Numbered from the stretch's first letter, positions 22,247 through 63,386 are shown. The stretch is 64,000 bases of DNA from an uncultured Verrucomicrobiae bacterium (GCA_951813855.1 OX638380.1:1380876-1444875); one strand, 5' to 3'. A program made the numbers and translations. Notes: generated by a model not told the origin, from the sequence alone.

Positions 22247-24542
22247 TCAGAAATCGCGGCTCGCCAATTCCAAGGACGACTGAGCCAATAACCGGCGAGC
22301 TTCCTTCAACAGGAAATCGATGTCTTCGAACGGTTCGTAACTGATTTCTTGCCAGCGAACGCGGCCTTCGCCGTCGATCAAAAAGGTGCCGTGAAGCGGT
22401 ACGTTTTCGAAATCGTCGAAGGCGCGGTATTCCTTGAACACGTCCAGCGAACCGTTGGACAGGACGGGAAAGTCCAAAGCCCCCAGTAATTCGCTTTCGG
22501 TCAACGCCCGGTTCAATTCCTCCAGGGTTTCGGTGCTGACGGCCACCAGGGAAACGCCTTGCTCAGCGAATTCGGCAACCCGAGGATGGACCAAGTTGAT
22601 TTGCTCGACGCAATGAGCGCAACCGTAACCCAAATAGAAAATCAGCACTAACGGTTTGCCCCGGTAGTCGGACAACCGCCGATACTTGCCTTGGGCGTCG
22701 GACAGGCGAAAATCGGGAGCCTTGCCCGGACTCCAGCGAAACGTGCCGAGTCCCTCCAAATCGGGCCGAACGCCTACGTCCTCCGGCGTCCGGTAAGGCC
22801 GTTTCCAATCCGTCTCGAATCCTAATTCCGGGGCCAAGGCGGTGAGCCGCTCGAATACCGGCATGTCCAGATCCAGATGCCCGGAACGCTCCTGCAGTTC
22901 CTTCATGGCCTGAATCGCCTCGTCCCGCCGGCCGGCGGCCTGAAGAATTTCCACCGCTGCCGCCAACACGTAAACTCGATTGGTTTCCCGGCTTTGGGTT
23001 CGTTGAATCAATTCGACCGCCTGGTCCACTTCTCCCATGGCCAGTTGCAGTCGGGCCTTGCGAACCGCGGAAATCCCGCGAGTTTGATCCAGCAGTTTTT
23101 TGGCCGCCTTGAACCGTCGTTCCTCGAGGGCGACATAAAGATCCAATTCCGCGATAGCGGCCCTGACACGGTCAATGGCGCCGCTATGCTTAAGCATCGC
23201 CTGAGCCATGATCCCGGCGATTTCGTCGTTCGATTTCCGGTCCTTTCTGCCCTGCTCTTCCGCCTCGTTCGCCGCCTGGATCCGTTCCCGGCGCTTGGTT
23301 CGCAGCAGTTCCTTCAGCGGCCGTTTGGCCGCCGCGACGCCCTTCAGATCTCCTCGTTGCCAAGCCGTCAAACCCAAGACCGTCTGCCGGCGGATTCGAT
23401 CGGCCTCGCTGTCGAGCGCTTCGAGATAAACCGAGTTCAGCGACGCTTCGAGATCCTCCCATAATTCGTAGCGAATCAACGTTTCCAGCAGCCGCTGGCG
23501 GCCGTGATAAGCGCTGGAACCCCGCTTGCCAGTATCGTTGTATCGGGGATGACGGGGCAACTCGATCATGTTCTTCGCTTGATCGACGGCGTCGTGAACC
23601 CGCCCGATATAATTGAGATTGCGAATCAACCATTCGTTGTTGTGGGCGTAATTGAAAATCTGATCCGGCAACAGGCGCGTGCACATCATATGGGTATGAT
23701 CGACCCGAGCCGACGCTTCTTGTTGCCACGCGGCATCGGCATAACGGTGCAACCGGGAAAAAATATGTCCCGGCATATGCCACATATGGGCGATGCCCGG
23801 AGCGGATTGCCCGCACAGGGCGGCGGAAGCGAGCGCACGCTCGGCCTTTTCGTAATCCCAAAGATGGATGCGATAATGATGCACCGGATGCTGAGGGTTG
23901 ACTTCCAGGATTTGCTGTATGAGCGAACTGACCGCCTGGTGGGATCCGATCGGATGAGAGCCACGATTTTCGTAAATCGTCACGACCAAAAAGGCCTTGG
24001 CCTCCAAGTCATCGGGATACTCGTAAACCAAGGCCTCCAAATCCCGGATCAATCGGCGGCTCCGGCTTTTCCGATCCCCCTCCTTCTTCGAGATAAAATC
24101 TTTCCAGGCTTTCGATCCACTGACGCTCCCGGGGCGTGGCGGCTTCCTTGCGGTCGACGGCTTCCTGAACGAAACCCTTGGCACGATCCCGGTTCTTGAC
24201 GTTGGCCATCGCCATGCCCCAATAGGTCATAGCGCAGGACGGGTCGAGCGCGGCGGCATGCCGAAAGGAACGCTCCGCTTCCAAGTACCAAAAGCCGTGC
24301 AACTGACCGATGCCCTGGTCGAAGAATTCCTGCACTTCGCGCGATTCGGTGCTCACGGGAAAATGAACGTTCCCGGTATTGCCCATGAACTGAGCCGCCT
24401 GACGAGGGCCTTCGTTGAACGCTTCGCCGTGAGCCGAATGACCGGCTAGCACTTCAACTTTGGTTTCCTCGGCGTCTTCTTGGGCCAAGACGACGACTCC
24501 GGCAAGGGTGACTGAAACAAAAAAGGATAAAATCGACTTCAT
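22247..24542 (-). pseudogene. TPR protein with C-terminal redoxin domain, interrupted by a +1 frameshift
   Basis: Two overlapping frames encode one protein. The N-terminal part (from about 24542) has a signal peptide, the HFPVSTESREVQEFFDQGI block and the first TPR (SFRHAAALDPSCAMTYWGMA). The frame must shift around 24076-24080, a run of five G on the coding strand, to continue into IRDLEALVYEYPDDLEAKAF, further TPRs and a C-terminal thioredoxin-like (AhpC/TSA) domain with GYGCAHC as its cysteine motif. Removing one G restores a single frame of about 760 residues. Homology is continuous across the shift, so this is either a sequencing error or a very recent mutation. The start could also be at 24566. 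Convergent with the sulfatase gene. Confidence 0.75.
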
Positions 24543-24603
24543 CAAGTTGGCGTTGTCCATTCCCATGGTAAGCAGAAAGACGTTAGACTGGCAAGCGAGG
24601 GCA

Positions 24604-24613
24604 AGGCTTATCG
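24604..24613. repeat. 10-bp target duplication, left side of nest 1
   Basis: AGGCTTATCG directly precedes the left end of the ISAs1-like element and recurs exactly at 33765-33774 after its right end, 9.2 kb away. Confidence 0.92.
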
Positions 24614-24850
24614 CAGGACTTTTTCATGCTAATAATTTTTGATCGACGATCGTTTTTTTCAGTGTCGAGCGGAGTATTTCGATTCGTCGGAAAAACTGTT
24701 TTTCCGAATTATGCTTCGAGTTAGGCGGCGATTGCCGATTGAGACGAGTTTCAGCCGGACAGGAGACTAAACCGGTGCGAGTATCGGTCAAACGATCAAT
24801 TCGCCGACCGAATCAGCAAGGAGGAAGCGTCGATAATCAGGAAGGTCGGG

Positions 24851-25367
24851 TCAGTTTTTTTTCGGACGTTTTTTCGGACGTTTAAACGGGGTGGTTTTCG
24901 TGACGGCTCGCAACCCTTGGTTCCGATTCGTCTGAAAATCGTCAGTAGCTTCGGCCATATTAGAGTATCCCGACTGGAGAATGATCGCCAAGGCCAGGTT
25001 GTTGAAGAGGGCATTGTTCGTCGGCCCATGGCGAGTTCGCCTGAGACAATCATCTTCGCCGAAAATCCCGTCGCGACGGCGGTGATTGCCGTTTTCTACC
25101 GTCCAATGTCCCCGATTGAGTGACAGCAATCGTTGAGCGTCGGCAGCCTCCGGAGGCAACGAAGTGACGCCGTAAGCATATTCCACGGTCTCGGGCCCAC
25201 CGTTCCAATGATGGCGGTGTCGAAGGATCCGAAAGACTTGGAGGACATGCGGTAATTTGACGGCTCCGGGAAGGGGTTCATAGGTTTGAATGCTCCGTTG
25301 GTCGATGCGGCCATGTCCTTTCTCCGGGTTTTCGGTGAACCGGTCCTGGGCCACTCGATCCCAATCC
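24851..25367 (-). pseudogene. ISAs1-like transposase, C-terminal piece (copy 1)
   Basis: This encodes the C-terminal part, from SLDWDRVAQDRF onward, including the GHWTVENGNHRRRDGIFGED block that holds the catalytic glutamate, and ending in the basic tail PFKRPKKRPKKN. Upstream of about 25373 the frame runs into the inserted IS, so it has no proper start. Confidence 0.9.
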
Positions 25368-25372
25368 AGGCT

Positions 25373-27768
25373 CAGACTTCCTGACACGATCGAATCCGAA
25401 AAACGGGTTTTAGCCCTCAAAAGCCAGTAAATACGCCCTTGGGGAGAAATGAGCGATTGATTATTCTGCCATTATGCGTTATAATAAGATCTGTGCGCAA
25501 AAACGGGTATCTGGGTTCGCTTCCTCAAGATTTTCATCCACAAAATCCGACCGTGATCAATGGCAATATTGCCATGTCATCGCAAGACGGCGTGACTTGT
25601 TATTTTGCCGATTTGGAACCGATATTCGTGCATCCCGACGATGATCAGATCTCACGGCGTGCGATCATGGGGATGCTTCATGTGGTGAATCAAATTCCTC
25701 AGAAACGACTGGCCGAGGTGTTTGGAGTTCATCGCAACACGATATCATCTTCTGCGATTCAGTACCGGGACGGCGGATTTAGTTCTTTCTATAAAAAAAG
25801 TTTGGTCGAAGCCGTACGGTTCTGACCCCGAAGGTCATCAAACGAGGAAGTCAATTGTTAGCCGAGGGAATGAGTCAACGTGGTGCCGCCAAGGTTTTGG
25901 GAATCAATTGGGTCACCTTTCATTTGGGTTGCAAAGCGGGGGTGATTGACGTGCCGTTAAAATCCGCTGCTTCGACCGAAACACTCGAAACCGAGGAAAA
26001 GCCACTCAAGGCTACGGAACGTTCCGAACGGAATAGCAAAGATTTACAGACCTCAATGGGGCGTGCGGCTCATGACGTCATCGGACGACAATTGGCCGCT
26101 GGGGGAATGCTGGAAGAGGTCAAACCCCATTTCGATCAGGCCCATAAAGCCGTGGAAAACGGCGGAGTGCTAACCACCTTGCCATGTTTACTTCAAGAAG
26201 GATTGCTCAGTGGAGTCAATGAAAATTTGAAACTCTCGAACGGTTATTACGGGGTGACATCGATCTTGAATTTTCTCGCCTTTCTGAGTTTGGCCCGGGT
26301 GCGGAATCCCGAAGCCCTCCGCTATGAAGCGCCGGGGGAATGGGGTATTATTTTAGGTTTGGATCGATGCCCTGAGGTCAAAACCTTGCGAAGGAAGCTT
26401 CGTTATCTGTCCGAAAACCAACCGGCCGTTAAAACCTGGCAAACCAACCTGTTCCAGCGCTGGATAAAACAAACCCCAGACGCCGCCGCGACCCTGTTGG
26501 TTGACGGACATTCGAAAGTCTACACCGGTCGTAAAGGCCATCTCCCCAAGCACGATGTCTCGCGAGCCAAGCTTTGTCTTCCCGCTACGGTGGGTTACTG
26601 GCTCAACGCCTTGGGGGGCAGCCCTTTGATGTGCCTGCGTCAAGCTCTCGACCCTCAAATGGCAGCGATGATCGAACAAGAGATCGTCCCGGAATTGAAG
26701 CGGAACGGGAAGTTGGGCAATCCAGCTCCTGACTGGCTTCAGAATCAGCCGCTGGCTCCCTCGATTACTTTGATCTTCGATCGCGAAGGCTGGTCTCCCC
26801 AATTATTTGAGCAACTGGCCAAGGTCGGCATCGCCGTGATTACTTGGACCAAAAATCGGCGCAGCGAAGATTGGCCATCAAACACTTTCCAAGAAATGGA
26901 AGCGCCGATTTATGGCCCAGCGGAAACCCTCTCGAGAAAAGTGTGGTTGGCCGAACAAAGCCTCCAACTTTCCCCGAGACTGAAGGTCCGGGAAATTAGA
27001 AAGCTTACGGCAGATGGCCGGCAATTATCTTTGGTGACTACTCATCCGACTTTGTCGCTGTCCAAGGTCGCTGGCGCGATGTTGTCACGATGGTCTCAAG
27101 AGAACTTCTTCAAGTCTATGCGACAAGAATTCAATTTGGATTCCCTGACCACTCAGAGGCTCGAAGAAATCGATCCCGAGACTCAAGTCGTCAATCCTCC
27201 AGTTCGCCAACTCAAAAAGGAAGTTAAGCAAACACAACATCAGTTAGGTCAACTCAGAAATCGACTTGCTGAACCTGCCCTATCAAGTAAGGCGCAGCAT
27301 TAATCTCAAACGCAATTAGCTCAAACCGAAACCGAATTGCAACAACTCAAAGCCCAGCTTAAAGACCTGCCAACGCACATCAAAGCGGGACAGTTATCAG
27401 AACCACTTCAAACCTTGCCATCCGACGACCGATTGATCTATGAAACGGTACGGATGATCGCCTATCGAACTGAGGTGAGAATGATGAACCCAATTATCAT
27501 GGCTCAAGGGAAAAAGCGTAATGCCAGAAAACTGCTTCAGGCTTTATACCAAGCCCAAGCCAACATTATCCCTGAGCAGCGAAACAAGGCATTGCGGGTT
27601 CAAGTTCTTGGGCTCGGCTGTCATGGTCTCGACCAAGCACTTACCGGATTATTCTCCGAGTTGAATGCCTCTGCCACGACTTATCCCGGCACGAATCTTC
27701 AAATGATTTACGAGCTTGCCGGTTGATATTTATGCACAAAACAAATTTAGCGCATGTCAGGAAGTCTG
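25373..27768 (+). mobile_element. Unclassified insertion sequence with 14-bp perfect inverted repeats
   Basis: 2396 bp. Both ends read inward as CAGACTTCCTGACA. The 5-bp target duplication AGGCT lies at 25368-25372 and 27769-27773, and the flanks rejoin to the ISAs1 transposase sequence seen intact in copy 3. The single transposase gene is broken. Confidence 0.9.
25439..27726 (+). pseudogene. Transposase of the unclassified IS (frameshift plus ochre stop)
   Basis: The N-terminal part has an HTH-like segment (QKRLAEVFGVHRNTISS). A seven-A run at 25793-25799 is one base short of joining the next frame, where TVLTPKVIKRGSQLLAEGMS continues the protein. The central part shows DDE-like candidates: LLVDGHSK, IFDREGW and RWSQENFFKSMR. 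A TAA at 27301-27303 breaks the same frame, which then resumes with a coiled coil (SQTQLAQTETELQQLKAQL) and ends at 27726. I do not recognise a named IS family. Two independent lesions make this a dead copy. Confidence 0.8.
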
Positions 27769-27773
27769 AGGCT

Positions 27774-27878
27774 GGTCAAAAATTGAGAGAGTTCGGGGTT
27801 GTTCTCCTTAACCGTGAAGAGAAAATGGGCTCCGTTAACCAACACGATGGCATCGGCCATGACTCGGTTAGTATGGAG
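27774..27878 (-). pseudogene. ISAs1-like transposase, middle piece (copy 1)
   Basis: About 100 bases encode NRVMADAIVLVNGAHFLFTV and nearby residues, isolated between the two nested insertions. The sequence matches the corresponding part of copy 3. Confidence 0.9.
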
Positions 27879-28065
27879 CAGCAATTCCCACTGAAGTCAG
27901 GCCAAATAGTAATTGTGAAAAAATTATTTGTAAATATGTTAAATACGGTCGAAAAGCGGATTTTCAAGCCTGATTTCAGATGAAATTTCGTTTTTTCCCT
28001 TGACCAGGTGATTTATTTTGCGTTTCGCCCGACCGACGAACGAGCTCAGAACGCACCACTCCTAG

Positions 28066-28091
28066 CTCGATCTAAATCGAGTTTTTTTTTT
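28066..28091 (+). terminator. Hairpin with T run inside the IS4-like element
   Basis: CTCGAT (28066-28071), a four-base loop, ATCGAG (28076-28081) and ten T residues. It would stop transcription running rightward on the plus strand into the antisense of the IS1380 transposase. Confidence 0.65.
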
Positions 28092-28379
28092 GAGGTCGCC
28101 GACTAGCGATCTCGGTCAGAATATCGCCGACTAGCCCGCAAATCTCACCAGCCCCTAAAGCATAAAAATTTAATGGCTTGGTGTCGTCGGATCTACTCTT
28201 TTTACTGCTTAGAACTTGTTAGCTGATAATTGTTGAGATCAAACGGGGGTTTTTATACCTAATTTTGTCGAAATCCAGTCTTGTTTACCGGTTTCGACCT
28301 AGCGATCCAAAAAGTGGAACACACCTCTCCCGTTTTCGATGCCGGGCGACTAGAATCGAAGAGGTTTCGTTTCGTTTAT

Positions 28380-29810
28380 TTAGGACAAAGCGCGCTGTCG
28401 TTCTCTGAACGCAACCTTGAGATTTTTGACTATCGTGCAGAAAAGTTTTTGGCGCGGATATATTGATGAAATCGTCATCCAATATTTGCGAACACTTACT
28501 TTGACGACCCCGGCGATTTTGAATAATTGAGTTCGAATGGTGCCACTAGTAGCGGTTTCCAAGGGGGTGCCTGTCAATCCATATTTCTTGATGATCCGCA
28601 TCAAGATACTAGCGAACACCGAAAAATACAGGCGCAACTGGTTTGACCGCAGGTATGCCGTCGACGTGCGATCGGCAAATAAATCCAGTTGCATTTCTTT
28701 GATGCGATTTTCCATGTCGCCTCGGGCGCAATATACCTCCTCGTACAATTCTTGCGGCGAATATTCCTGGGGATTCAGATTGGTCACCACGAAGCGAGGA
28801 TTGGGCCCTTCGGGCAACCATTCCGCCTTCCCGATTACCTGTCGGCTACCGCTCCATGATCGGAGAGTGCGATAGGTGAAGCGCCGGAAGACTCGAGCCC
28901 TTTCACCGGTGGCTTGGGAGTCTTTTTTCGCTTGAGCCAGCTGAGATTCAATCTGAGCCAACAAGCGTTTGTTTTTCGCCAAGCCGAAGACATATTTGAG
29001 TTGATTCGCTTCACACCAAGACATGATTTCATCCGTGGAAAACGCCCCGTCGCCCCGCACGATGATCGTGGTCTTCGGCCAACGCTTCCGGATCTGATCC
29101 ACGATCCGTTCCAATTCTTCCACCACCCCGTCGGCCGCCGAAAGATGCGACGGGCGCAACCGGCAACACAGCACGTCTTGACCGCAGGTGATGTAAAGCG
29201 GCAAATAACAATGAGCCTGATAATGGCCGTGATAATGCTTGCCCTCTTGATTGCCGTGCAGCAGATCGTCGGTCGTGTCCAAATCCAGGATGATGGTTTC
29301 GGGAGCCTGCTCGAATTGTTCCAAAAACAGAGCGACGATCAAGGCATCGATTCGTGCGGTATCCGCCACGATTTTCTTGTAGCGGTCCTTGCCTTCAGAC
29401 TCGGAATCACCCAATTCCATGCGATTGAGAGTGCTGGATCCCGCTAAGGGATTGCCTCGGTCTCGTTCGCGAGACCGGTCGGCACCGGTGATGTCTAACA
29501 GATTGAGTGCCAGAGCCAGGGCGCTGTCTTTACGCAAATCGTTGTGATCGTTCACGTCCTCGTAACCCAAGGCGATCCCGAAAACCCGTTGCGCGATCAG
29601 GGTTTCTGTGGAATGTTCCGTTCGAATCGAATCCCGATGATCGACAAAACACTGGGCCAGGCGGTGGGTGATCCGGAACATATCATTGGCCTCCCGAAGT
29701 AACAGGGTTCCACTGTCGGAGGTCATGATGCCGCCCTTGAAATTTGCCACCACCTCACGATTCCCGAGGTGCCCCAGTTTCATCTGATAGCCCCGTTGAG
29801 CTGTTTTCAT
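28380..29810 (-). CDS. IS1380-family transposase
   Basis: About 476 residues when started at the ATG at 29810, which has GGGAG five bases upstream; the frame is open to 29894. The opening LGNREVVANFKGGIMTSDSGTLLLREAN is diagnostic of IS1380-type transposases. Catalytic candidates are LDLDTTDD and the IVRGDGAFSTDEIMSWCE block, with YCARGDMENRIKEMQLDLFADRTS near the C terminus carrying the glutamate. It appears full length and intact. Confidence 0.88.
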   Translation of the reverse strand: MKTAQRGYQMKLGHLGNREVVANFKGGIMTSDSGTLLLREANDMFRITHRLAQCFVDHRDSIRTEHSTETLIAQRVFGIALGYEDVNDHNDLRKDSALALALNLLDITGADRSRERDRGNPLAGSSTLNRMELGDSESEGKDRYKKIVADTARIDALIVALFLEQFEQAPETIILDLDTTDDLLHGNQEGKHYHGHYQAHCYLPLYITCGQDVLCCRLRPSHLSAADGVVEELERIVDQIRKRWPKTTIIVRGDGAFSTDEIMSWCEANQLKYVFGLAKNKRLLAQIESQLAQAKKDSQATGERARVFRRFTYRTLRSWSGSRQVIGKAEWLPEGPNPRFVVTNLNPQEYSPQELYEEVYCARGDMENRIKEMQLDLFADRTSTAYLRSNQLRLYFSVFASILMRIIKKYGLTGTPLETATSGTIRTQLFKIAGVVKVSVRKYWMTISSIYPRQKLFCTIVKNLKVAFRERQRALS

Positions 29811-30602
29811 CTGCGCTCCCATGCCACGCTTTTCTCTGATTGCCTTCCAAGTTGAACTCGGTGGCCGATCACGAACCAATTTGGCTCTTGGCACCGTGCC
29901 GAGTTCTGTCGAATCCCGTCTTTCCCAAGCGGGGAAAAGCCGCCACGCACCCCCAAATCAACCGAGGCCAAAGTAATGATATGAAACAAATATCCCAGGA
30001 TGGATATAGTATTGGTCTTGTTGGTGAGTTTTGTCACTGGGTCGCTGGCAACTCAACTCCATTGAGAAAAGCTGGGGGCCGTTTGTAGCAATATAAACCG
30101 AATCCCTGAATTGTCATTCCAGTTGATGGTACGCTCACGACACTAGAGACACCGGAAATACAAATATGTTACAAAAAAAATCATTTTTTTCGTAAGCGGT
30201 AAATTGGGACAGGAACCAGTGAGCACGGAGCCAGGAATAAGCCGAGGCCCGGGAGTGATGAGGGCCGAGATAAACCGAAATGTTAACAGCCTTAAAAAGC
30301 AACCAGTTCAAAGTCGGAAAACATGGGTTTGAAAGCCAAAAAACCTTGATTGGCAAGAATCAGGTCACTATCGAATCCAATCGTTGCAGATCGCCGTCGA
30401 AAATGAGATACCTGAATCGCGATTATTCTGACTTTTATTTCAAAAATCTCAGAAATGCGACTCAACCAAACAAAAAAGAACAAAATTCACTAATGACAGT
30501 GTGTTTTTTGCCGTCATTTTAATTTTGGGGTCGTTAGCCAGTAATAATCAGCATTTTGGGTGATCAATGACGCCATACGCAATATCTGGTGAGATATGCG
30601 GG

Positions 30603-32033
30603 CTAGGTGGGGGCGGCAGGTTTAGGCACGAAGTCGAGCATCCCATACACGAGTAACTGGTAGAGATGGTTCCAATCCGTGAGACAATGCATGCGAAGAT
30701 GGCATCTGATTTCAATCCAGACTTCCTGGAGCGATCCGATCATCTGAGGCGCCCGTTTAAAGAGAGTACAAGCGATCAGTTCCATTTGATCTACCAGCAC
30801 CGCCAGCATCATCAAAAACAGAAAAACCGTGGCGAGATGTTCTTTTCCGTGGCCATAATTGTGCTCCAACTGGTACCCGCGATTTTTCAAACTATTAAAC
30901 GTATCCTCGATTTGCCACCGGCTGCGACCGGCCCGCGCTATTTTTTGAACGTTGGAGTCATTGATTTCCCAATCCGTGACCCAAGAAAAAATCGCCGGCT
31001 TTTCACCCGGAGCTTCGATTTCGCACCATAAAAAATTAATTTTAAGATCAGGATTTTCTTGGTTCAGCGGCTGTTGATTCACCCAGATGTACGTATACTT
31101 GACGCCAGCTTGGTCCCAACATACGAACCGGTGGGATTCACCGGTCTCATCCGCTTTCACAAATAGCTCGAATAAATGTTCGTGATTGCTTGGTCTGGCG
31201 ACGATGATAAAGGACATTCGATACCGTTTCAGGAGCTTGATAAACGGGGCGTTGGAATGAAGCCCATCGGCCAAGACGACGATCTTCAGGCGGGGATGTT
31301 CCCGATGAAGCCTGGTGACCAGCCGCCGGATGGCTCGGCTCTCGCAATCGTTGATGAGCCATTGATTGGTGTTTTCCCATCGGTAACGGTCAATATACCG
31401 GCATGGAAAGTCGGTGAGTTCCTCGTCCTTCGGGCCCACCTCCGGGTCGGCTTCCGAACCGATTAATTGCTTGCTGATCGGCTCTGGCGCTAGCGGAATA
31501 ACCTCCGACTGGTCCGGATGAACCACGGCGACTCCCACGGCTTGATGGTAATAGGTGATCGCACCGTTTTCGTGTTGTTTTTGACCGCAGTGTTCACAGT
31601 GAAGATGGTTGGAAGAGAAAACCCCGGTGCCGTCTATCGACACGAGATAATGCTTGTCTTCCCACCAATATCGCTTCAACACTCCGTTTCGTTGTAACAT
31701 CCGAAACAGTTCCAGGAACGCGGATCGAAGATGAATGGGATTGATCCGATCCAGGAATTTGCGTAATCCCGAATCAGAAGGCACTCGTTTGATACGATAC
31801 AGTCGGCGCAAGTTAGCCCGGGTTCTTCGGCTCATACCCTTTCGTTTCCGACTTCGAGTGGCTTCGTCAAAGCCCAGTAACGAGGAAAATTTCTGCTGCA
31901 ACGCCACAAACGCGCTCATCAAATGGTCGGTGACCTCGTACCTGCTTTTGCGGCAGGGGCGTGGAACGAGGCGAAAACACCCCCAAATCCTCCCGAGGAT
32001 ATTGGGTTTGAGTAATTTTTTGCGGAATTTCAC
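30603..32033 (-). CDS. IS4-like DDE transposase
   Basis: About 476 residues from the GTG at 32033 (VKFRKKLLKPNILGRIWG); the frame stays open to 32174 but the extra residues do not look like family sequence. DDE candidates are SIDGTGVFSS, VVLADGLHSN and the RWQIEDTFNSLKNRGY block with its glutamate. A CEHCGQKQ zinc-ribbon-like motif sits after the first aspartate. It reads intact and probably moved the element 27879-32443. Confidence 0.85.
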   Translation of the reverse strand: MKFRKKLLKPNILGRIWGCFRLVPRPCRKSRYEVTDHLMSAFVALQQKFSSLLGFDEATRSRKRKGMSRRTRANLRRLYRIKRVPSDSGLRKFLDRINPIHLRSAFLELFRMLQRNGVLKRYWWEDKHYLVSIDGTGVFSSNHLHCEHCGQKQHENGAITYYHQAVGVAVVHPDQSEVIPLAPEPISKQLIGSEADPEVGPKDEELTDFPCRYIDRYRWENTNQWLINDCESRAIRRLVTRLHREHPRLKIVVLADGLHSNAPFIKLLKRYRMSFIIVARPSNHEHLFELFVKADETGESHRFVCWDQAGVKYTYIWVNQQPLNQENPDLKINFLWCEIEAPGEKPAIFSWVTDWEINDSNVQKIARAGRSRWQIEDTFNSLKNRGYQLEHNYGHGKEHLATVFLFLMMLAVLVDQMELIACTLFKRAPQMIGSLQEVWIEIRCHLRMHCLTDWNHLYQLLVYGMLDFVPKPAAPT

Positions 32034-32452
32034 CAAGGAAAACCTTTCGTTGATTGGTTGTGAGGATCGGCTTGTTCCACGACGGATCAGGCCGGTCGGC
32101 ACGTCGAACGGAATCAAAACATGGGACTGACGCTGAGATCCCGGCAGATCGCAGACTCCTGAGTTCGAGAACAACTCGAGATCCTCTCGGAGGGCTTTTC
32201 TGGCCGGAAAATACGTCGGGAGAACAGGTTAAGACGAATTATGGCACCAGATCCAGGGCCAAAAAGCGTCAAATCACGTTTTGGTCAGGAAAAGATACGA
32301 AAAAACAGCGATTACAACGAAACCACCATTAATGTAGCATAGTTTTGGAAGAAATGCTGAAAATATTTGAAAAAAGCAGCGCGAAAACCAGATCGAGAAA
32401 ACCCTTGTTTTTACTGGATTTTCTTCTTCAGTGGGAATTGCTGAGTATGGAG

Positions 32453-33739
32453 CGCATCGATCGTAATGATGGCTCCTCGGATATCGACATCCTCCAAGAG
32501 AGCCGCCATCGCCGCCTGTTCGCCGCCTTGGTCTCGGCAACTGCGAACGGCGATGGGCACCGCATCTTGATGGCGCACGAGGATGACGGTCTCGAAATGG
32601 TCTTTGCTGTTGCGATTAGCTCCGTTGATCCGCTTGCCGTCAGCAGCCAAGGCTTCCAGGGGTTGTCGAGTCAATTGGGCCGTTACCCAGCGGTGAGTTA
32701 CCGTTTGCAACGCTTCCGGATCCGTCTCGGTCATGACCCGGTGAATCGTCGCGAGAGACGGGGCTACGTAACGGTCCTTGGCGTTGCGCCACGCCCCGAG
32801 AGTCTGTAATTGGTTTTGCGTAATTTTTTGGGCGTAACGCGAAGTCGCCAAGGGGCCGACCTTGCCGGCCAATCGAGCTAAGATGCAGATAGCGAGCACC
32901 ATTTCCAGCCGATGTTTGCGTCCTTGGGCTCGGCGAAAATCAGCCATTTCCGCGAGCAGTTGCACCAATGATTTCAACTGTTTCGGGGACGTTTCTACCC
33001 GTTGCACCTGGGGGCCCCAAGACGGATCGTCCTTACGGTCCCTTAATCGGGAACCGGCTTGGGGACGCAAGGGATAAAGGTACATTTCCTTCTTTATATT
33101 GTGCCGGGCGGTATAGCGTCCGTTGCTGCGAGCGTAGCCTTGCGATTGCCCTGCCGCCCGCCAATTCCCCGCGCGATAGATCGTGCCCGCGAAGTGTCGG
33201 GGATCGACGAAAGTTTCGGCCAATTCCAACGGATGACCCCAGGTCCGTTGCCAATCGGCACTCAGCCGGCGCAGCATTTTGGCCATGACGCAACTCCCCA
33301 GATTGCGCACTTCGCCCCGCTCGGTAAGCAGGAGGAATCGGGTATTGTTGGCAATCAAATGAAGCCGACGAAACTGCTCTCGTTTTTTCCATCCGAGCCA
33401 CTTGTCTCGCGGGCGACACTGGAACACTCCGCTTTGCCAGCCGGCTAACGCCAACCACCGGCCTCGGTACTCGGCAACATAACGCAGCCCGCGTCCGGCA
33501 AAGCCTTTGAAACCCAAGCGATGGTTCTGATCCATCAGCGAATCCCAACGTCTTCGCTCACTGCTCTTCACCAATCGAACAGTCACCAGCTTGAGGTTGA
33601 TTTTGGCGTCCATGAGGAACCAATAACGACCGGAGAATGAAAAAGCCAGCTTTATTTTCCCATTTTGAAGACGCTGAAGTTTCGGCTCTCTGGTGAAGGG
33701 AAAAAGCGAATATGGCTCGAAATCGGTGACACGGGCCAC
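32453..33739 (-). pseudogene. DUF4338-ISAs1 transposase, N-terminal piece (copy 1)
   Basis: From a GTG at 33739 the frame encodes the complete DUF4338 (DruA-like) module (GRGLRYVAEYRGRWLALAGW ... ETFVDPRHFAGTIYRAGNW) and the first part of the ISAs1 catalytic domain, with DGKRING and TIDALHT carrying the two catalytic aspartates. It breaks where the nested element begins; the last residues before the stop at 32411 come from that element. Confidence 0.9.
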
Positions 33740-33764
33740 TAGCGATTAGCGTGAAAAAAACCTG

Positions 33765-33774
33765 AGGCTTATCG
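33765..33774. repeat. 10-bp target duplication, right side of nest 1
   Basis: AGGCTTATCG, identical to 24604-24613. Confidence 0.92.
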
Positions 33775-40138: not shown

Positions 40139-42505
40139 TTACATGGCAATGGCTTTTTTGCCTGCCTCAAAACCTGCCTTATACGCTGCTTCGTATACCT
40201 CGGCACACTTGGAGCCGTAGCCGTAGCGATGTCCCAAACTCGCTCCCGAAAGCTTCGTATAGCCATACCACATGATTTGATTTCCGGGTTCGGTGTCATG
40301 CTTGCGACCGCGGTAGCCTCCCAGCTCGGCTACCAACCGAACCGCGTTGCCCAACTCATTCGGCAATTTCATCTTGAGTGCCAAGGCGTAGTGCTTTAAA
40401 AAACTCAGTTCCTCATCGCTGAACATTAATTTCGGATCGCAATCAGGCACTTGGCGACCCAAGAGCGTCATCACCATGATACGCCAAGCGATCACGGCAT
40501 TGATCGCGATGGCACGTTGTAATCTGCTGGCGGTACGGAACATCAAGTATTCGGCTTTGCATCCCGATTTGAGGACTCGAAAAAAATCCTCGATCCGCCA
40601 ACGTTGATGATAAAACCTCACCATTTCGGCGGCTTTTTCGGCATCTTTGACGTCCACGCTAGTCAATAAATACCACTGGATGGGTTTTTCCTCTTCGGGC
40701 GGGTCGGTTTCCTCGACATGAACGGCGGAGAGCCGGACCGGTTCGGCCTGGGGACAAGTTTTCGTCGCGGGCAGCGTCACATGACAGAACCGCAAAGCGC
40801 AGCGCGCCACTCGCTTCTTCCGCGTTGGTCGAGCTGCCTTGCGGCTGGATTTCGGGCGTTCCGTCAGACCGTCGACTTCCAGGCTCAAATGATCCACGGG
40901 CCGTTGACGTTTGATGGTGGCGAATAGTTTCGCTTCTTCAGGCTTTAGTTTTCGGTCGTGTCGGGCTCGCACCAGTAGTTCCGTTCGAGGGCGTTGACGC
41001 TGAGCGTGAAATAATTCGAACAGGTCCGCTTCGCGATCGCACACCGAGATGACCTGCGTTCGGCGAGTCAGTTGACTCGCCGCGTCGGTGCAATCTTTCC
41101 AGCCAGCCAACCAACGTTGTGAGGCCAAGCGTTCTGTTTTGGCGGCGACTTCAGGTGCCGGATCAAATCCCAAGCGCAACAGCCCCAAAGGCAGACCTTG
41201 ATCGGTGACCGCCAAAGTAGCGTGAAGATGCAGGCCGAAGGCCTTGGCCTGGGTTTGATTCTGCCCGATAACGCTCAAGTCTTCGCACCCGGGGCGAGTG
41301 GTGAAATTGAAATCGGTGCCGTCTTGAATCGCCAGCACCGTCTTTTGACCGCGCATGCGTCGGAGGCTGCGTTCCCGATGTGGCGCCAAGATGTTGGTCA
41401 CCGTGACCTCCGAGGTCTCCGGTTGCTCAATCAAACGATAATAGCCGCAGATCGCCGCTTCATCGCTCTGGTCGTTGGCATTGATGGCTCGCCCCGGATA
41501 CTCCGCCAGCAGCGAAGCACTTTTGATCAGTCGGGCTGTCAAGCGCTGATCCCCCAACCTGGCTTCTCCAAACTCAGTCGCGGCCCATTCTTCTGAATTC
41601 AGTCCCGCTCCGATCGGCAGCGTGACCGCCAGCTCAACCCAGGGAACTCCCAGACGCCGGCGCCAATCGCGCCGCAAGGGTTTCACGAATATCCGCTTGA
41701 TCGTTTTTTGGCGAAGGTTTTTTCGATCCTGCCGTCCTCGCCCGGCCGTTTTCCCGACCCAGATGAAATTGGCGGCCTTGAGACAGGTTCCTTGGTAACC
41801 CTCGTCCAGATAGGTTTCCACCAGCCAAGGTTCTTGATTGTAGCAGGCTTGAAATTCCTCGGGCAGCCGGCGCAACAGAGTTCCTAGCAGGTGACTCGCC
41901 AGATTCCGGCAGCGGACCCTGGAGCGGATCAAGAATCGATTCAGGCAAACCATTCGATCAAGCTGAGCCTTTCGCACCGACTCCGACCAGGCTATCCAGT
42001 GATCCCGCGCCCGAACTTTCAAGGCCGCGGCGGCAAAGCCGGCGGCCCCCAAATAGCCATGCTCCGAATGGAACAGATAGCGCAGTTGCTGACCGGCGAA
42101 AGTCGCGATCCCCTGGGGATGCTCTCGAGCGATCAGGGTGTTCCAAATGGCTCGATCCTCCGAAGTTTCAACCCAGATAATATTGAGATTCCGAACGGCC
42201 TTCAACTTGTCCGGAACCGCTTCGGGTTCCGGAATCGGCTAAGCTAACACGCGCGGCCCCGAGGACTTCACCGACGGCTGAGCGTCCGGCAATCGGATCT
42301 CCGGGTGGTTCGACGCCAACGTTCTCAGCACCTTCAAACAACCGGCGACCTGAAGCCGGCCACCTCGATTTCTAAAATCGAAAGTTTCGCAAACCCGGCG
42401 TCCGAAAGCATTCCGGCTCGTGAAAGTTTCAGCCGCTAAGAGGCCAATGATCCTTGATTGCGCCTCGGCGGTTTTCAAAACCAGATTGATGTTCCCTCGT
42501 TTCAC
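40139..42505 (-). pseudogene. DUF4338-IS4 (Tn5-like) fusion transposase with in-frame amber codon
   Basis: One frame runs from a GTG at 42505 to 40139 (789 codons) with a single TAG at 42239-42241 (codon 89). Codons 1-88 hold the N-terminal part of DUF4338 (FGRRVCETFDFRNRGGRLQV). After the TAG follow the rest of DUF4338 (GQQLRYLFHSEHGYLGAAGF ... VETYLDEGYQGTCLKAANFI) and a Tn5/IS4 transposase with QDGTDFNF, CDREADLFELF and YHQRWRIEDFFRVLKSGCKA, the YREK-type catalytic block. Without readthrough only a shortened protein from an internal TTG at 42205 could be made. Its last codon is now a TAA formed at the junction with the ISNCY end. Confidence 0.85.
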
Positions 42506-45492: not shown

Positions 45493-48030
45493 TCAGTGGT
45501 TGAACAGGAATTCCTTGGTATTGATCAAGGCCCAAATGATGTCCTCGTAAGCCATGCGAACCGGATCGGGCAGTTCTTCGTCCGGTTTGTCGCCCGCATC
45601 GACCGGAGCGGATTCGAGTTTCCGATCCAAATAGGCCAACGCCAACTCCAATTCCTCGACGCTAGGGTAACGGCTCAAAGCCAACAGATAGATTTCGCTG
45701 ATCTTTTCTTCGGGCGACCGGGAGGCGTCCTGAGCCAACGCCGCCGCCCTGCCGGTATCGGCCGCCAGCTTCTTCTGCAAATCCCCGGAATTAATCAGAT
45801 GCAGGCTTTGAGCCAAGCTGGCCTCTTGGGAACGCTCGCATTCGCAGGAACTGGACGAATCCGGCCGGCCGAAAACCGTCAAAAAGTAATTGCCGCTGTT
45901 GAAACTGTTGTCCGGCAACTCCACGGCTCGGGTATCCGGCGGCAAACCGGCGAATGTCATTTCGGCTCCTATCAACTCATAAATCGAGTCATAGAGAATT
46001 TCGGCCATGAGCCGCTTGGGATAGTACCGGGAAAAATGCTGTTTATCGACGCCGTTATACTGATTGGGAATCGAACTCAACTGATAGGTGCGCGACTGGC
46101 AGATGAGCCGAACCAACCCCTTGAGATCGTAACCCGAATCGACGAAATGCCGGGACAAGGCGGCTAGCAAATCGGGATGGGTCGGCGGATTGGTCGCTCT
46201 CATGTCGTCCTCCGGATCGACGATGCCCCGGCCGAAAAAATGCTTCCAGTAACGGTTCACCAGCGATCGGGCGAAAAAGGGATTGTTGGAGTCCGTCATC
46301 CACCGCGCCAATTCCATCCGCGGGTCGGTGAGCCGATCGATCGCCTTCGGTTCGACGCCCAACCCCGCCGGACGTACGAACTGTCCGGTCTTGAGATTCT
46401 TGGTTTGAGCCAAGCCCGGCTGATGATAGACGATCTCCTCGCTCGGCCCCGATCCCTTGGTCCGCCCCAGCCGGGAAAAAAAAGCGGCGAACCGGTAATA
46501 ATCCTGCTGACTCCAGACTTCGAACGGATGATGATGGCATTGGGCGCATTGCAGGCGGACTCCCAAAAACAACTGGGCCGTATCCTCGACTTGCTCGTTG
46601 AGGTTTCTGACCCTCCGGTACCAGGCCACCGGCGGATTGTCCCGCATGTCCCCGGAAGCCGTCAGCAAGGAAGCGACGAACCGGTCGTAGGGCAGATTGT
46701 TCCGCAAGCTTTCCCGAATCCAATCGTGAAACAGGTAGGTGCCGCGTTTTTCGTTGTTATTGTTACGGCGGTTCCTCAGCAAGGCGCTCCACTTGTTGGC
46801 GAACAAGGCGCTATAGCCGGGATCTTCCAACAACGTATCGATCCAACGATCGCGTTTATCGGGGGACCGGTCGCGGAGGAACTCAATCGTCTCTTGCGGC
46901 GTCGGTAAGCGGCCGGCAACATCCAAAGCCGTTCTTCTCAAAAAAGTCGCGTCGTCGGCAGAGCCCGAAGGAGGCACGCCCACCGCTTGCAATTTGGCGA
47001 AAATAAAATCATCGATGAAATTGCCGGGCGGCGGCAATTGCTCGACGGGAGTGCCGAGGGGAACAGTCGCTCGAAACACCGCTACCTGAGATTGATACCG
47101 AACCATCACGCCGACCTCGCCGACCTGCTCGCGAAGCTTGACTAATCCCAGTTCGGTCACTTCAGCCATGCTCTCGACATTGGGTTCGTAGAGGGCCCCG
47201 CGCGTAACGTCTCGAAGACTGCCGTCGGTATAACGAGCCACGACCGACAGTTGCTGACTGTCGCCTGGCCGCATGACGCGGCGGTCGGGATAAACGCTAA
47301 TGGCTTCCACCGTCGGATCGCCGGGTTCGCCGTAAGGCATTCCTTGCCGAATCCAACGGTAAATCGTGTCGTAATCGACGGAACCCTTCTCCAACCGCTT
47401 GCCGCCTCCGTGCGGCAACTCGCCGGTGGCCTTGCGCAACAGCAGACTATGTTCCGGAGCGGCAGGAAAAATCCGCCGGCCCCGCGATTCGTAAACCAGA
47501 TATTCGTAGTCCTCCGTCGGTTCGAATCCCAACAGCGACAGGCGGAATCCGTTCTGCCCCCCGGACTTGCCGTGACAGCCGCCGCCGTTGCATCCGGTCT
47601 TGGTAAAGATCGGCACTACCTGGTTAGCGAAATTGATCGCCTGTTCCCGGCCGGTATCTTCGACCGTAATGTTGATCCGAGCCTCTAATCCGTCGGACGA
47701 TTCCACGCTCAACTCGGTCGAACCGTCGGCCAGCGGTTCCATCCAACCGGTCGCATCCACCGCCACGACCCCGGCCGGTTCGCTTCGAAAGACTACCTGA
47801 CGGGTATAGTCGCCGATCTTGCCGTCGGCGAACGCGGCGGTGACCAGCAACTGGCGCCGGTCACTGGAACCGATCAAACGAAAGTCCGACCGCTCTTCCC
47901 CGAATTCCAGTCCGCTGACCTTCACGTCCAACGATTCGGGAACCGAAGCGATCAGAACGCCGGTGGCCATGCCGAACAGGATCGACAAAAACCGGCGGCA
48001 CGGAAACAAGCGAAACAGGCAACGATTCAT
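45493..48030 (-). CDS. Secreted DUF1549/DUF1553 protein with Ig-like domains
   Basis: 845 residues. A signal peptide is followed by a bacterial Ig-like segment (VVFRSEPAGVVAVDATG), a cytochrome-like region with CNGGGCHGKSGG, a second Ig-like segment (SVYPDRRVMRPGDSQQLSVVARYTDG), then DUF1549 (LRRTALDVAGRLPTPQETIEFL ... CAQCHHHPFEVW) and DUF1553 (RMELARWMTDSNNPFFARSL, VNRYWKHFFGRGIVDPEDD). This architecture is characteristic of Planctomycetota and Verrucomicrobiota and is nearly always paired with a DUF1501 gene, as here (21 bases upstream). Its function is unknown; an extracellular role with carbohydrate metabolism has been suggested from context. Confidence 0.9.
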   Translation of the reverse strand: MNRCLFRLFPCRRFLSILFGMATGVLIASVPESLDVKVSGLEFGEERSDFRLIGSSDRRQLLVTAAFADGKIGDYTRQVVFRSEPAGVVAVDATGWMEPLADGSTELSVESSDGLEARINITVEDTGREQAINFANQVVPIFTKTGCNGGGCHGKSGGQNGFRLSLLGFEPTEDYEYLVYESRGRRIFPAAPEHSLLLRKATGELPHGGGKRLEKGSVDYDTIYRWIRQGMPYGEPGDPTVEAISVYPDRRVMRPGDSQQLSVVARYTDGSLRDVTRGALYEPNVESMAEVTELGLVKLREQVGEVGVMVRYQSQVAVFRATVPLGTPVEQLPPPGNFIDDFIFAKLQAVGVPPSGSADDATFLRRTALDVAGRLPTPQETIEFLRDRSPDKRDRWIDTLLEDPGYSALFANKWSALLRNRRNNNNEKRGTYLFHDWIRESLRNNLPYDRFVASLLTASGDMRDNPPVAWYRRVRNLNEQVEDTAQLFLGVRLQCAQCHHHPFEVWSQQDYYRFAAFFSRLGRTKGSGPSEEIVYHQPGLAQTKNLKTGQFVRPAGLGVEPKAIDRLTDPRMELARWMTDSNNPFFARSLVNRYWKHFFGRGIVDPEDDMRATNPPTHPDLLAALSRHFVDSGYDLKGLVRLICQSRTYQLSSIPNQYNGVDKQHFSRYYPKRLMAEILYDSIYELIGAEMTFAGLPPDTRAVELPDNSFNSGNYFLTVFGRPDSSSSCECERSQEASLAQSLHLINSGDLQKKLAADTGRAAALAQDASRSPEEKISEIYLLALSRYPSVEELELALAYLDRKLESAPVDAGDKPDEELPDPVRMAYEDIIWALINTKEFLFNH

Positions 48031-55542: not shown

Positions 55543-59283
<3,741 letters not shown>

Positions 59284-61210: not shown

Positions 61211-63386
61211 CAGGACTTTTTCATGCTAATAATTTTTGATCGACGATCGTTTTTTTAAGTGTCGAGCGGAGTATTTCGATTCGTCGGAAAAACTGTTTTT
61301 CCGAATTATGCTTCGAGTTAGGCGGCGATTGCCGATTGAGACGAGTTTCAGCCGGACAGGAGACTGAACCGGTGCGAGTATCGGTCAAACGATCAATTCG
61401 CCGACCGAATCAGCAAGGAGGAAGCGTCGATAATCAGGAAGGTCGGGTCAGTTTTTTTTCGGACGTTTTTTCGGACGTTTAAACGGGGTGGTTTTCGTAA
61501 CGGCTCGCAACCCTTGGTTCCGATTCGTCTGAAAATCGTCAGTAGCTTCGGCCATATTAGAGTATCCCGACTGGAGAATGATCGCCAAGGCCAGGTTGTT
61601 GAAGAGGGCATTGTTCGTCGGCCCATGGCGAGTTCGCATGAGACAATCATCTTCGCCGAAAATCCCGTCGCGACGGCGATGATTGCCGTTTTCTACCGTC
61701 CAATGTCCCCGATTGAGTGACAACAATCGTTGAGCGTCGGCAGCTTCCGGAGGCAACGAAGTGACGCCGTAAGCATATTCCACGGTCTCGAGCCCACCGT
61801 TCCAATGATGGCGGTGTCGAAGGATCCGAAAGACTTGGAGGACATGCGGTAATTTGACGGCTCCGGGAAGGGGTTCATAGGTTTGAATGCTCCGTTGATC
61901 GATGCGGCCATGTCCTTTCTCCGGGTTTTCGGTGAACCGGTCCTGGGCCACTCGATCCCAATCCAGGCTGGTCAAAAATTGAGAGAGTTCGGGGTTGTTC
62001 TCCTTAACCGTGAAGAGAAAATGGGCTCCGTTAACCAACACGATGGCATCGGCCATGACTCGGTTAGTATGGAGCGCATCGATCGTAATGATGGCTCCCC
62101 GGATATCGACATCCTCCAAGAGAGCCGCCATCGCCGCCTGTTCGCCGCCTTGGTCTCGGCAACTGCGAACGGCGAGGGGCACCGCATCTTGATGGCGCAC
62201 GAGGATGACGGTCTCGAAATGGTCTTTGCTGTTGCGATTAGCTCCGTTGATCCGCTTCCCGTCGGCAGCCAAGGCTTCCAAGGGTTGTCGAGTCAATTGG
62301 GCCGTTACCCAGCGGTGAGTTACCGTTTGCAACGCTTCCGGATCCGTCTCGGTCATGACCCGGTGAATCGTCGCGAGAGACGGGGCCACGCAACGGCCCT
62401 TGGCGTTGCGCCACGCCCCGAGAGTCTGCAATTGGTTTGGCGTCATTTTTTGGGCGTAACGCGAAGTCGCCAAGGGGCCGACCTTGCCGGCCAATCGAGC
62501 TAAGATGCAGATAGCGAGGACCATTTCCAGCCGATGTTTGCGTCCTTGTGCCCGGCGAAAATCAGCCGTTTCCGCTAGCAGTTGCACCAATGATTTCAAC
62601 TGTTTCGGAGACGTTTCTACCCGCTGCACCTGGGGGCCCCAAGACGGATCGTCCTGACGCTTCCTTAATCGGGAACCGGCTTGGGGCCGCAAGGGATAAA
62701 CGTACCTTTCCTTCTTGATATTGTGCCGGGCGGTATAGCGTCCGTTGCTGCGAGCGTAGCCTTGCGATTGCCCTACCGCCCGCCAATTCCCCGCGCGATA
62801 GATCGTGCCCGCGAAGTGTCGGGGATCGACGAAAGTTTCGGCCAATTCCAGCGGATGACCCCAGGTCCGTTGCCAATCGGCACTCAGCCGGCGCAGCATT
62901 TTGGCCATGACGCAGCTCCCCAGATTGCGCACTTCGCCCCGCTCGGTAAGCAGGAGGAATCGGGTATTGTTGGCAATCAAATGAAGCCGACGAAACTGCT
63001 CTCGTTTTTTCCATCCGAGCCACTTGTCTCGCGGGCGACACTTGAACACTCCACTTTGCCAGCCGGCTAACGCCAACCACCGGCCTCGGTACTCGGCAAC
63101 ATAACGCAGCCCGCGTCCGGCAAAGCCTTTGAAACCCAAATAATGGTTCTGATCCATCAGCGAATCCCAGCGTCTTCGCTCACTGCTCTTCACCAATCGA
63201 ACGGTCACCCGCTTGAGGTTGAATTTGGCGTCCCTGAGGAACCAATAACGACCGGAGAATGAAAAAGCCAGCTTTATTTTCCCATTTCGAAGGCGCTAAA
63301 GTTTCGGCTCTCTGGTGAAGGGAAAAAGCGAATATGTCCCGAAATCGGTGACACAGGCCTCTAGCGATTAGCGTGAAAAAACCCTG
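61211..63386 (-). mobile_element. ISAs1-like element with DUF4338 module, copy 3
   Basis: 2176 bp with inverted repeats CAGGACTTTTTCATGCTAAT and CAGGGTTTTTTCACGCTAAT (17 of 20 identical, both read inward) and a perfect 10-bp target duplication. It is the reference copy for rebuilding copy 1. Confidence 0.95.
61448..63208 (-). CDS. DUF4338-ISAs1 fusion transposase (copy 3)
   Basis: 586 residues from a GTG at 63208. Compared with copies 1 and 2 it lacks about 35 N-terminal residues because a TAG stands where copy 1 has CAG, in the KL(Q)RLRNGK segment. The DUF4338 module is complete (FAGRGLRYVAEYRGRWLALA; ETFVDPRHFAGTIYRAGNW), as is the catalytic domain with ALAADGKRING, TIDALHTNRVMADA and GHWTVENGNHRRRDGIFGED. 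Whether it is active depends on whether the short N terminus is needed. Confidence 0.88.
   Translation of the reverse strand: MTVRLVKSSERRRWDSLMDQNHYLGFKGFAGRGLRYVAEYRGRWLALAGWQSGVFKCRPRDKWLGWKKREQFRRLHLIANNTRFLLLTERGEVRNLGSCVMAKMLRRLSADWQRTWGHPLELAETFVDPRHFAGTIYRAGNWRAVGQSQGYARSNGRYTARHNIKKERYVYPLRPQAGSRLRKRQDDPSWGPQVQRVETSPKQLKSLVQLLAETADFRRAQGRKHRLEMVLAICILARLAGKVGPLATSRYAQKMTPNQLQTLGAWRNAKGRCVAPSLATIHRVMTETDPEALQTVTHRWVTAQLTRQPLEALAADGKRINGANRNSKDHFETVILVRHQDAVPLAVRSCRDQGGEQAAMAALLEDVDIRGAIITIDALHTNRVMADAIVLVNGAHFLFTVKENNPELSQFLTSLDWDRVAQDRFTENPEKGHGRIDQRSIQTYEPLPGAVKLPHVLQVFRILRHRHHWNGGLETVEYAYGVTSLPPEAADAQRLLSLNRGHWTVENGNHRRRDGIFGEDDCLMRTRHGPTNNALFNNLALAIILQSGYSNMAEATDDFQTNRNQGLRAVTKTTPFKRPKKRPKKN

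What the first reader, a model, noticed from the sequence alone, without database searches (positions are those of the whole stretch)
24604..33774. One ISAs1 copy split by two independent insertions; pieces sum exactly to 2176 bp
AGGCTTATCG flanks the 9.2-kb unit. Pieces 24614-25372, 27774-27878 and 32453-33764 total 759+105+1312 = 2176 bp, the same as copy 3. Each interruption has its own inverted repeats (14 bp and 18 bp) and duplication (AGGCT, AGTATGGAG). Elements that look scattered are one insertion site.
Basis: seen in the sequence. Interest (0 to 1): 0.6.

Follow-up and report, generated by a model that had tools for sequence, protein, structure and literature searches.

The report
Split transposon with Mom-like domain
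A jumping gene in a bacterial chromosome has been broken into three exact pieces by three later jumping genes (one nested inside another), and its own enzyme carries an extra domain related to the DNA-modifying Mom protein of phage Mu, which turns out to recur in several unrelated families of bacterial transposons.

Summary
The three pieces join into 2176 bp that align to copy 3 without a gap (55 mismatches) and give one open frame of 639 codons. The outer duplication is 10 bp; two interruptions have their own terminal repeats and duplications (5 and 9 bp). The sum 2176+2401+2102+2472 = 9151 bp matches exactly. The unit is also only the left part of about 21 kb that separates two genes which are neighbours in two same-genus genomes.
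Nested insertion sequences are ordinary. What is not ordinary is the transposase: an N-terminal DruA (PF14236) domain sits in front of an ISAs1 transposase. AlphaFold models of two such domains have phage Mu Mom as best PDB match, 11 of 15 match Pfam Mom weakly, and the serine whose loss inactivates Mom is invariant. The same domain is fused to ISAs1, IS4/Tn5-like and IS701 transposases and is a separate gene inside IS66 elements. I found no description of this in the papers held. Base modification by the domain is a hypothesis, untested.

The parts
24604..24613 (.). left target duplication AGGCTTATCG of the ISAs1-type element
   Evidence: identical to 33765-33774; other copies have 9-10 bp duplications
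24614..25372 (-). ISAs1-type element, piece 1 (3' part of transposase gene; includes one copy of AGGCT)
   Evidence: aligns to 61211-61969 without gap
25373..27768 (+). insertion A: 2396-bp element with Transposase_29 (PF21804) gene broken by a frameshift and an in-frame stop
   Evidence: 14-bp exact terminal repeats; Pfam; 2397-bp copies elsewhere, one with duplication AATAT
27769..27773 (.). second copy of 5-bp duplication AGGCT (first at 25368-25372)
   Evidence: sequence
27774..27878 (-). ISAs1-type element, piece 2
27870..27878 (.). 9-bp duplication AGTATGGAG of insertion B (second copy 32444-32452)
   Evidence: sequence; 9-bp duplications at three other copies
27879..28134 (-). insertion B: IS4-like element, 3' part
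   Evidence: 18-bp exact terminal repeat; continuous 2092-bp copies elsewhere
28131..28134 (.). 4-bp duplication CTAG of insertion C (second copy 30603-30606)
   Evidence: comparison with uninterrupted IS4-like copies L075-L077
28135..30602 (-). insertion C, nested in B: IS1380 element, transposase 28380-29894
   Evidence: NF033539 358 bits, cut-off 180; near-identical copies elsewhere; ends
30607..32443 (-). insertion B: IS4-like element, main part; transposase 30603-32174, whose stop codon lies in the CTAG duplication and is kept
32453..33764 (-). ISAs1-type element, piece 3 (5' part of transposase gene)
33071..33607 (-). DruA (PF14236) domain of the ISAs1-type transposase, Mom-like
   Evidence: Pfam 74 bits, cut-off 27; model of the same domain of copy 2 best matches Mom 8bv8
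32684..32962 (-). DDE_Tnp_1_assoc domain of the same transposase
33765..33774 (.). right target duplication AGGCTTATCG
55543..57719 (+). copy 2 of the element, intact 635-aa DruA-ISAs1 transposase 55575-57482; no flanking duplication
   Evidence: NF033564 138 bits, cut-off 70; Pfam
61211..63386 (-). copy 3 of the element, transposase 61448-63208
40139..42205 (-). a different DruA fusion: DruA + IS4/Tn5-type transposase
   Evidence: Pfam; NF033590 307 bits, cut-off 160

Best explanation
A 2176-bp ISAs1-family element inserted just upstream of a redoxin/TPR gene, duplicating 10 bp. Two other elements later inserted into it: a Transposase_29 element (5-bp duplication) and an IS4-like element (9-bp). 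An IS1380 element (CTAG duplication) then inserted into the IS4-like one. The ISAs1 transposase gene is thereby cut into three, though its frame was otherwise open. Its protein is an N-terminal DruA domain, which is a Mom-related GNAT fold, followed by an ISAs1 DDE transposase. Most likely function (inferred, not shown): the domain chemically modifies DNA bases, as Mom does to phage Mu DNA, on the element or its transposition intermediate, protecting it from host nucleases or marking it (about 0.35-0.4 on its own). Shown: anatomy, homology, conserved residues, recurrence in four transposon families. Inferred: catalysis, substrate, benefit. The confidence given is for the anatomy plus the Mom relationship, not for catalysis.
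For: Gapless join and open frame. Exact length sum 9151 bp. Uninterrupted IS4-like copies show the IS1380 insertion point. DruA at 64-74 bits, cut-off 27. AlphaFold models of the ISAs1-type (pLDDT 86) and IS701-type (pLDDT 91) domains both have Mom 8bv8 as first PDB match, E 7.8e-8 and 1.3e-7. Pfam Mom is the only other family hit by more than one of the domains, 11 of 15, best 8.7e-7. hhalign to Mu Mom E 0.0019. The S-to-A change of the inactive Mom in 8bv8 falls on a serine that pairs with one invariant in all 15 domains. Fusions to ISAs1, IS4, IS701 and a gene inside IS66.
Against: Mom similarity is below Pfam's cut-off; hhalign probability is only 14%; other GNATs follow closely in the first fold search (1.0e-7), TM-scores are about 0.6, and the two models share their alignment. 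IS4-type domains have Pro and Leu where Mom has Tyr49 and Tyr149. No activity data. No fully empty allele of the exact insertion point was found.
Confidence: 0.82

Rival explanations
1. The DruA domain is a catalytically dead GNAT-fold module that only binds DNA or helps assemble the transposase on its ends.
For: It sits at the N-terminus, where many transposases have DNA-binding domains; some members lack Mom's Tyr49 and Tyr149 equivalents.
Against: His, Arg, Ser, Glu, Gly and Lys positions are invariant over 15 domains at about 30% identity, including the residue needed by Mom; in IS66 it is a separate gene, and IS4-type members keep their own Tnp_DNA_bind domain.
Confidence: 0.3
2. The domain acetylates a protein (transposase or host factor) like an ordinary GNAT, regulating transposition.
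For: GNAT fold; many protein or small-molecule acetyltransferases among the fold matches.
Against: Mom is first in both fold searches and the only other Pfam family hit repeatedly; no general acetyltransferase family is hit.
Confidence: 0.15
3. The apparent nesting is an assembly artefact from collapsed repeats.
For: The genome is full of near-identical copies of these elements.
Against: All four junction pairs have exact duplications of the length seen at other copies, and the split copy has its own 55 differences from copy 3; a mis-join would not restore all of these.
Confidence: 0.03
4. The DruA domain is a Druantia defence component captured by transposons and still acts in defence.
For: Name and family of DruA.
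Against: Neither of the two transposases scanned matches any PADLOC defence model; the domain moves within transposon ends, and no Druantia partner genes were noticed in the loci read.
Confidence: 0.07

Closest known systems
ISAs1 family insertion sequences (NF033564)
   Same: DDE_Tnp_1_assoc + DDE transposase, intact copies 138 and 157 bits against a cut-off of 70; 9-10 bp duplications; ends beginning CAGG
   Different: about 2.2 kb long, with an extra N-terminal DruA domain of about 200 aa
Phage Mu Mom (PF25680; PDB 8bv8)
   Same: GNAT fold, best structural match; shared His, Arg, Ser, Asp, Gly and Ala-x-Asn positions
   Different: sequence match below the Pfam cut-off; fused to a transposase; no Com-like regulator seen
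Druantia DruA (PF14236, formerly DUF4338)
   Same: same Pfam family, well above cut-off
   Different: here part of transposons; no Druantia partners noticed in the loci read
Insertion sequences with passenger genes (general knowledge)
   Same: a non-transposase gene or domain resident in an IS
   Different: here the same domain recurs in four IS families, fused to the transposase in three

Membership tests
ISAs1 family | transposase passes NF033564 | tested here: met
   copies 2 and 3: 137.8 and 156.8 bits, cut-off 70; the split pieces alone 66.6 and 63.4
ISAs1 family | 8-10 bp target duplication | tested here: met
   9-10 bp at most intact copies
ISAs1 family | imperfect terminal inverted repeats | tested here: met
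   CAGGACTTTTTCATGCTAAT against CAGGGTTTTTTCACGCTAAT
ISAs1 family | usual length about 1.2-1.5 kb, transposase only (typical rather than defining; from general knowledge) | tested here: not met
   about 2.2 kb with extra DruA domain
DruA (PF14236) | score over gathering cut-off | tested here: met
   54-167 bits in full-length proteins scanned, cut-off 27
Druantia defence system | DruE and other Dru partners encoded alongside | not tested
   no partner was noticed in the loci read, but no systematic search was made; two transposases have no PADLOC match
Mom (PF25680) | score over gathering cut-off | tested here: not met
   best individual score seen 26.1 bits, cut-off 27.1
Mom (PF25680) | fold of 8bv8 | tested here: met
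   first match of two models, TM about 0.6
Mom (PF25680) | serine needed for activity (S124 in 8bv8) | tested here: met
   invariant serine in all 15 domains pairs with it
Mom (PF25680) | modifies adenine in DNA | not testable with these tools
   needs biochemistry
IS1380 family (insertion C) | transposase passes NF033539; short (4-bp) duplication | tested here: met
   358 bits, cut-off 180; CTAG
IS4 family (insertion B) | transposase passes an IS4 NCBIfam model | tested here: not met
   NF033591 31.5 bits, cut-off 152; PF01609 met at 34.7 bits, cut-off 23; hence 'IS4-like'

The most novel reading that the evidence does not exclude
Several unrelated bacterial transposon families (ISAs1, IS4/Tn5-like, IS701, IS66) have repeatedly recruited a Mom-type DNA base-modification enzyme, as phage Mu, itself a transposon, did, so that the transposition machinery modifies its own DNA to escape host restriction; the defence protein DruA would belong to the same enzyme group.
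Probability: 0.35. Interest if true: 0.85.

Novelty: new variant of a known kind. Interest (0 to 1): 0.58.

Why it matters
The nesting itself is routine, but it gives a partly resolved order of insertions. The transposase points to a transposon-borne relative of Mom. If it modifies DNA, transposons would share a counter-restriction strategy with phage Mu, and the unknown role of DruA in the Druantia defence system would become testable through Mom's known chemistry.

Tried and rejected
Empty site in relatives: DNA of the right flank has no match in 39 relatives; only the gene neighbourhood could be used. Single-protein scan of genome contigs with copy 3 found nothing; alignment A2 was not conserved enough for a scan; a stand-alone DruA protein found at least 204 relatives. 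PADLOC: no match. PDB sequence search with the DruA profile or an IS701 fusion: nothing useful. Plasmid searches with the domain alone: only Candidatus Thiodictyon. Literature: no held paper found that links DruA/DUF4338 to transposases or Mom; one calls DUF4338 GNAT-like (PMC10853773); two likely relevant papers by Iyer and colleagues are not held. A DNA fold of the left end shows nothing.

Full report
Observation. The join reads as one open frame of 639 codons. The element occurs in about 36 full or nearly full copies and several fragments in this 4.89-Mb chromosome. Of the copies read, most have a 9- or 10-bp duplication directly outside the same two ends.

A third insertion. The 4565-bp interruption 27879-32443 is not one element. 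Uninterrupted IS4-like copies elsewhere are 2092 bp, with the same 18-bp ends and 9-bp duplications, and read ...GCCGACTAGGTGGGGG... where the window has CTAG, 2468 bp, CTAG. The 2468 bp (28135-30602) carry an IS1380 transposase (358 bits, cut-off 180). The CTAG target contains the stop codon of the IS4-like transposase, and the duplication keeps it, so that protein stays whole (reading). Bookkeeping: 2176 + (2396+5) + (2093+9) + (2468+4) = 9151 = length of 24614-33764.

Order. ISAs1 first, since both A and B lie in it; then A and B in unknown order; IS1380 after B. Identity fits: the three full IS1380 copies elsewhere are 99-100% alike, full IS4-like copies 95-98%, the split ISAs1 copy 97.5% to copy 3. 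The transposase of insertion A is broken by a frameshift and an in-frame stop.

Surroundings. The gene left of the site (redoxin with TPR-like part, 22247-24566, minus strand) lies about 110 bp downstream of the PSCyt2/PSD1 gene in two same-genus genomes (L105, L106). In the window that PSCyt2/PSD1 gene is 45493-48030. An exactly empty allele was not found.

The transposase. Intact copies have DruA (PF14236), DDE_Tnp_1_assoc and DDE_Tnp_1 and pass the ISAs1 model NF033564. The genome has 64 DruA matches; none of the 10 same-family genomes has any, which suggests recent arrival and a burst. The matches include other architectures: DruA with an IS4/Tn5-type transposase (window 40139-42205, L045, L060). 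In other genomes of the phylum there are DruA-ISAs1 (L118, L119, L121, L122, L123, L143), DruA-IS4 (L116) and DruA-IS701 (L114, NF033540 299 bits, cut-off 150). A plasmid of Candidatus Thiodictyon syntrophicum, a gammaproteobacterium, has a DruA-ISAs1 fusion annotated only as ISAs1 transposase.

DruA as a separate gene in IS66. A 291-aa stand-alone DruA (L115) has at least 204 relatives over many phyla, many on short contigs. In most of those read, an IS66 transposase gene follows it: Desulfoferrobacter suflitae, Gemmatimonadota, Planctomycetia, Chloroflexi, and L141 of the window's own order. In Desulfoferrobacter the DruA gene lies inside a repeated unit: three copies are identical over the 1001 bases read at its 5' side, which hold two small genes like IS66 TnpA and TnpB by inspection, and two copies are identical through the 3' side until both diverge at the same base, about L212:5208. 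So DruA travels inside the element.

Relation to Mom. AlphaFold models of the copy-2 domain (pLDDT 86) and of the IS701-type domain (pLDDT 91) both have the crystal structure of phage Mu Mom (8bv8, inactive mutant S124A) as first PDB match, E 7.8e-8 and 1.3e-7, TM about 0.6. In the first search other GNATs follow closely; in the second the gap is over tenfold. The two models were made from the same 15 sequences and are not fully independent. Of 15 domains, 11 also match Pfam Mom at E up to 1, best 8.7e-7, below the cut-off; no other family is hit by more than one. hhalign gives E 0.0019 but probability 14%. The 8bv8 chain shows that S124A is Ser114 of the annotated 231-aa Mom. hhalign and MAFFT both pair it with the serine that is invariant in all 15 domains. 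Also paired in MAFFT: Mom His48, Arg101, Asp139, Gly146, Tyr149, Ala151, Gly157; the Tyr49 and Tyr149 equivalents are missing in IS4-type members of this genome. That Mom modifies adenine is from the literature (PMC7824862).

Mechanism. Most likely, in my judgement, the domain modifies DNA bases of the element, by analogy with Mom; this is inferred. Rivals are a dead DNA-binding GNAT module and a protein acetyltransferase.

Novelty. Nested insertion sequences are ordinary. Transposases with a DruA domain exist unremarked in annotation. I found no held paper linking DruA to transposases or Mom, and a 2026 Druantia paper states that the components other than DruE have no recognised domain (PMC13316683); but the library is partial and two likely papers are not held. 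I rate it a new variant of a known kind.

Noticed in passing
window 24604-45492: About 21 kb, mostly insertion sequences, lie between two genes that are neighbours (about 110 bp apart) in two same-genus genomes.
   Followed up: partly
window 22247-24566 (-): The redoxin/TPR gene next to the insertion is split into two overlapping frames, while relatives have one open frame of 777-923 codons: a frameshift or a sequencing indel.
   Followed up: partly
window 40139-42205 (-): A second kind of DruA fusion, with an IS4/Tn5-type transposase, 7 kb from the split element.
   Followed up: yes
L212:1722-5208, L214, L210: DruA gene resident in an IS66 element of Desulfoferrobacter suflitae, between the TnpB-like gene and TnpC.
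   Followed up: yes
window 25373-27768: The Transposase_29 gene of insertion A is broken by a frameshift and an in-frame TAA.
   Followed up: partly
window 55543-57719; L016, L029, L032, L034, L038: Several copies of the ISAs1-type element lack an exact flanking duplication, as expected after recombination between copies (L016 differs by one base only); copy 2 lies directly beside the atpD-like gene.
   Followed up: no
L011, L014-L021, L027-L029: A subgroup of copies is 11-12 bp shorter, near the C-terminal KRPK repeat of the transposase, and several have the same length and score: a recent burst.
   Followed up: no
L148, L154, L155: In genome G023, stand-alone DruA genes precede transposase-like frames other than IS66 (one weak UPF0236 match), so more transposon families may be involved.
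   Followed up: partly
L144:1288-3357 (-): A 689-aa protein in G012 matches DruA in two parts; no transposase domain was looked for.
   Followed up: no
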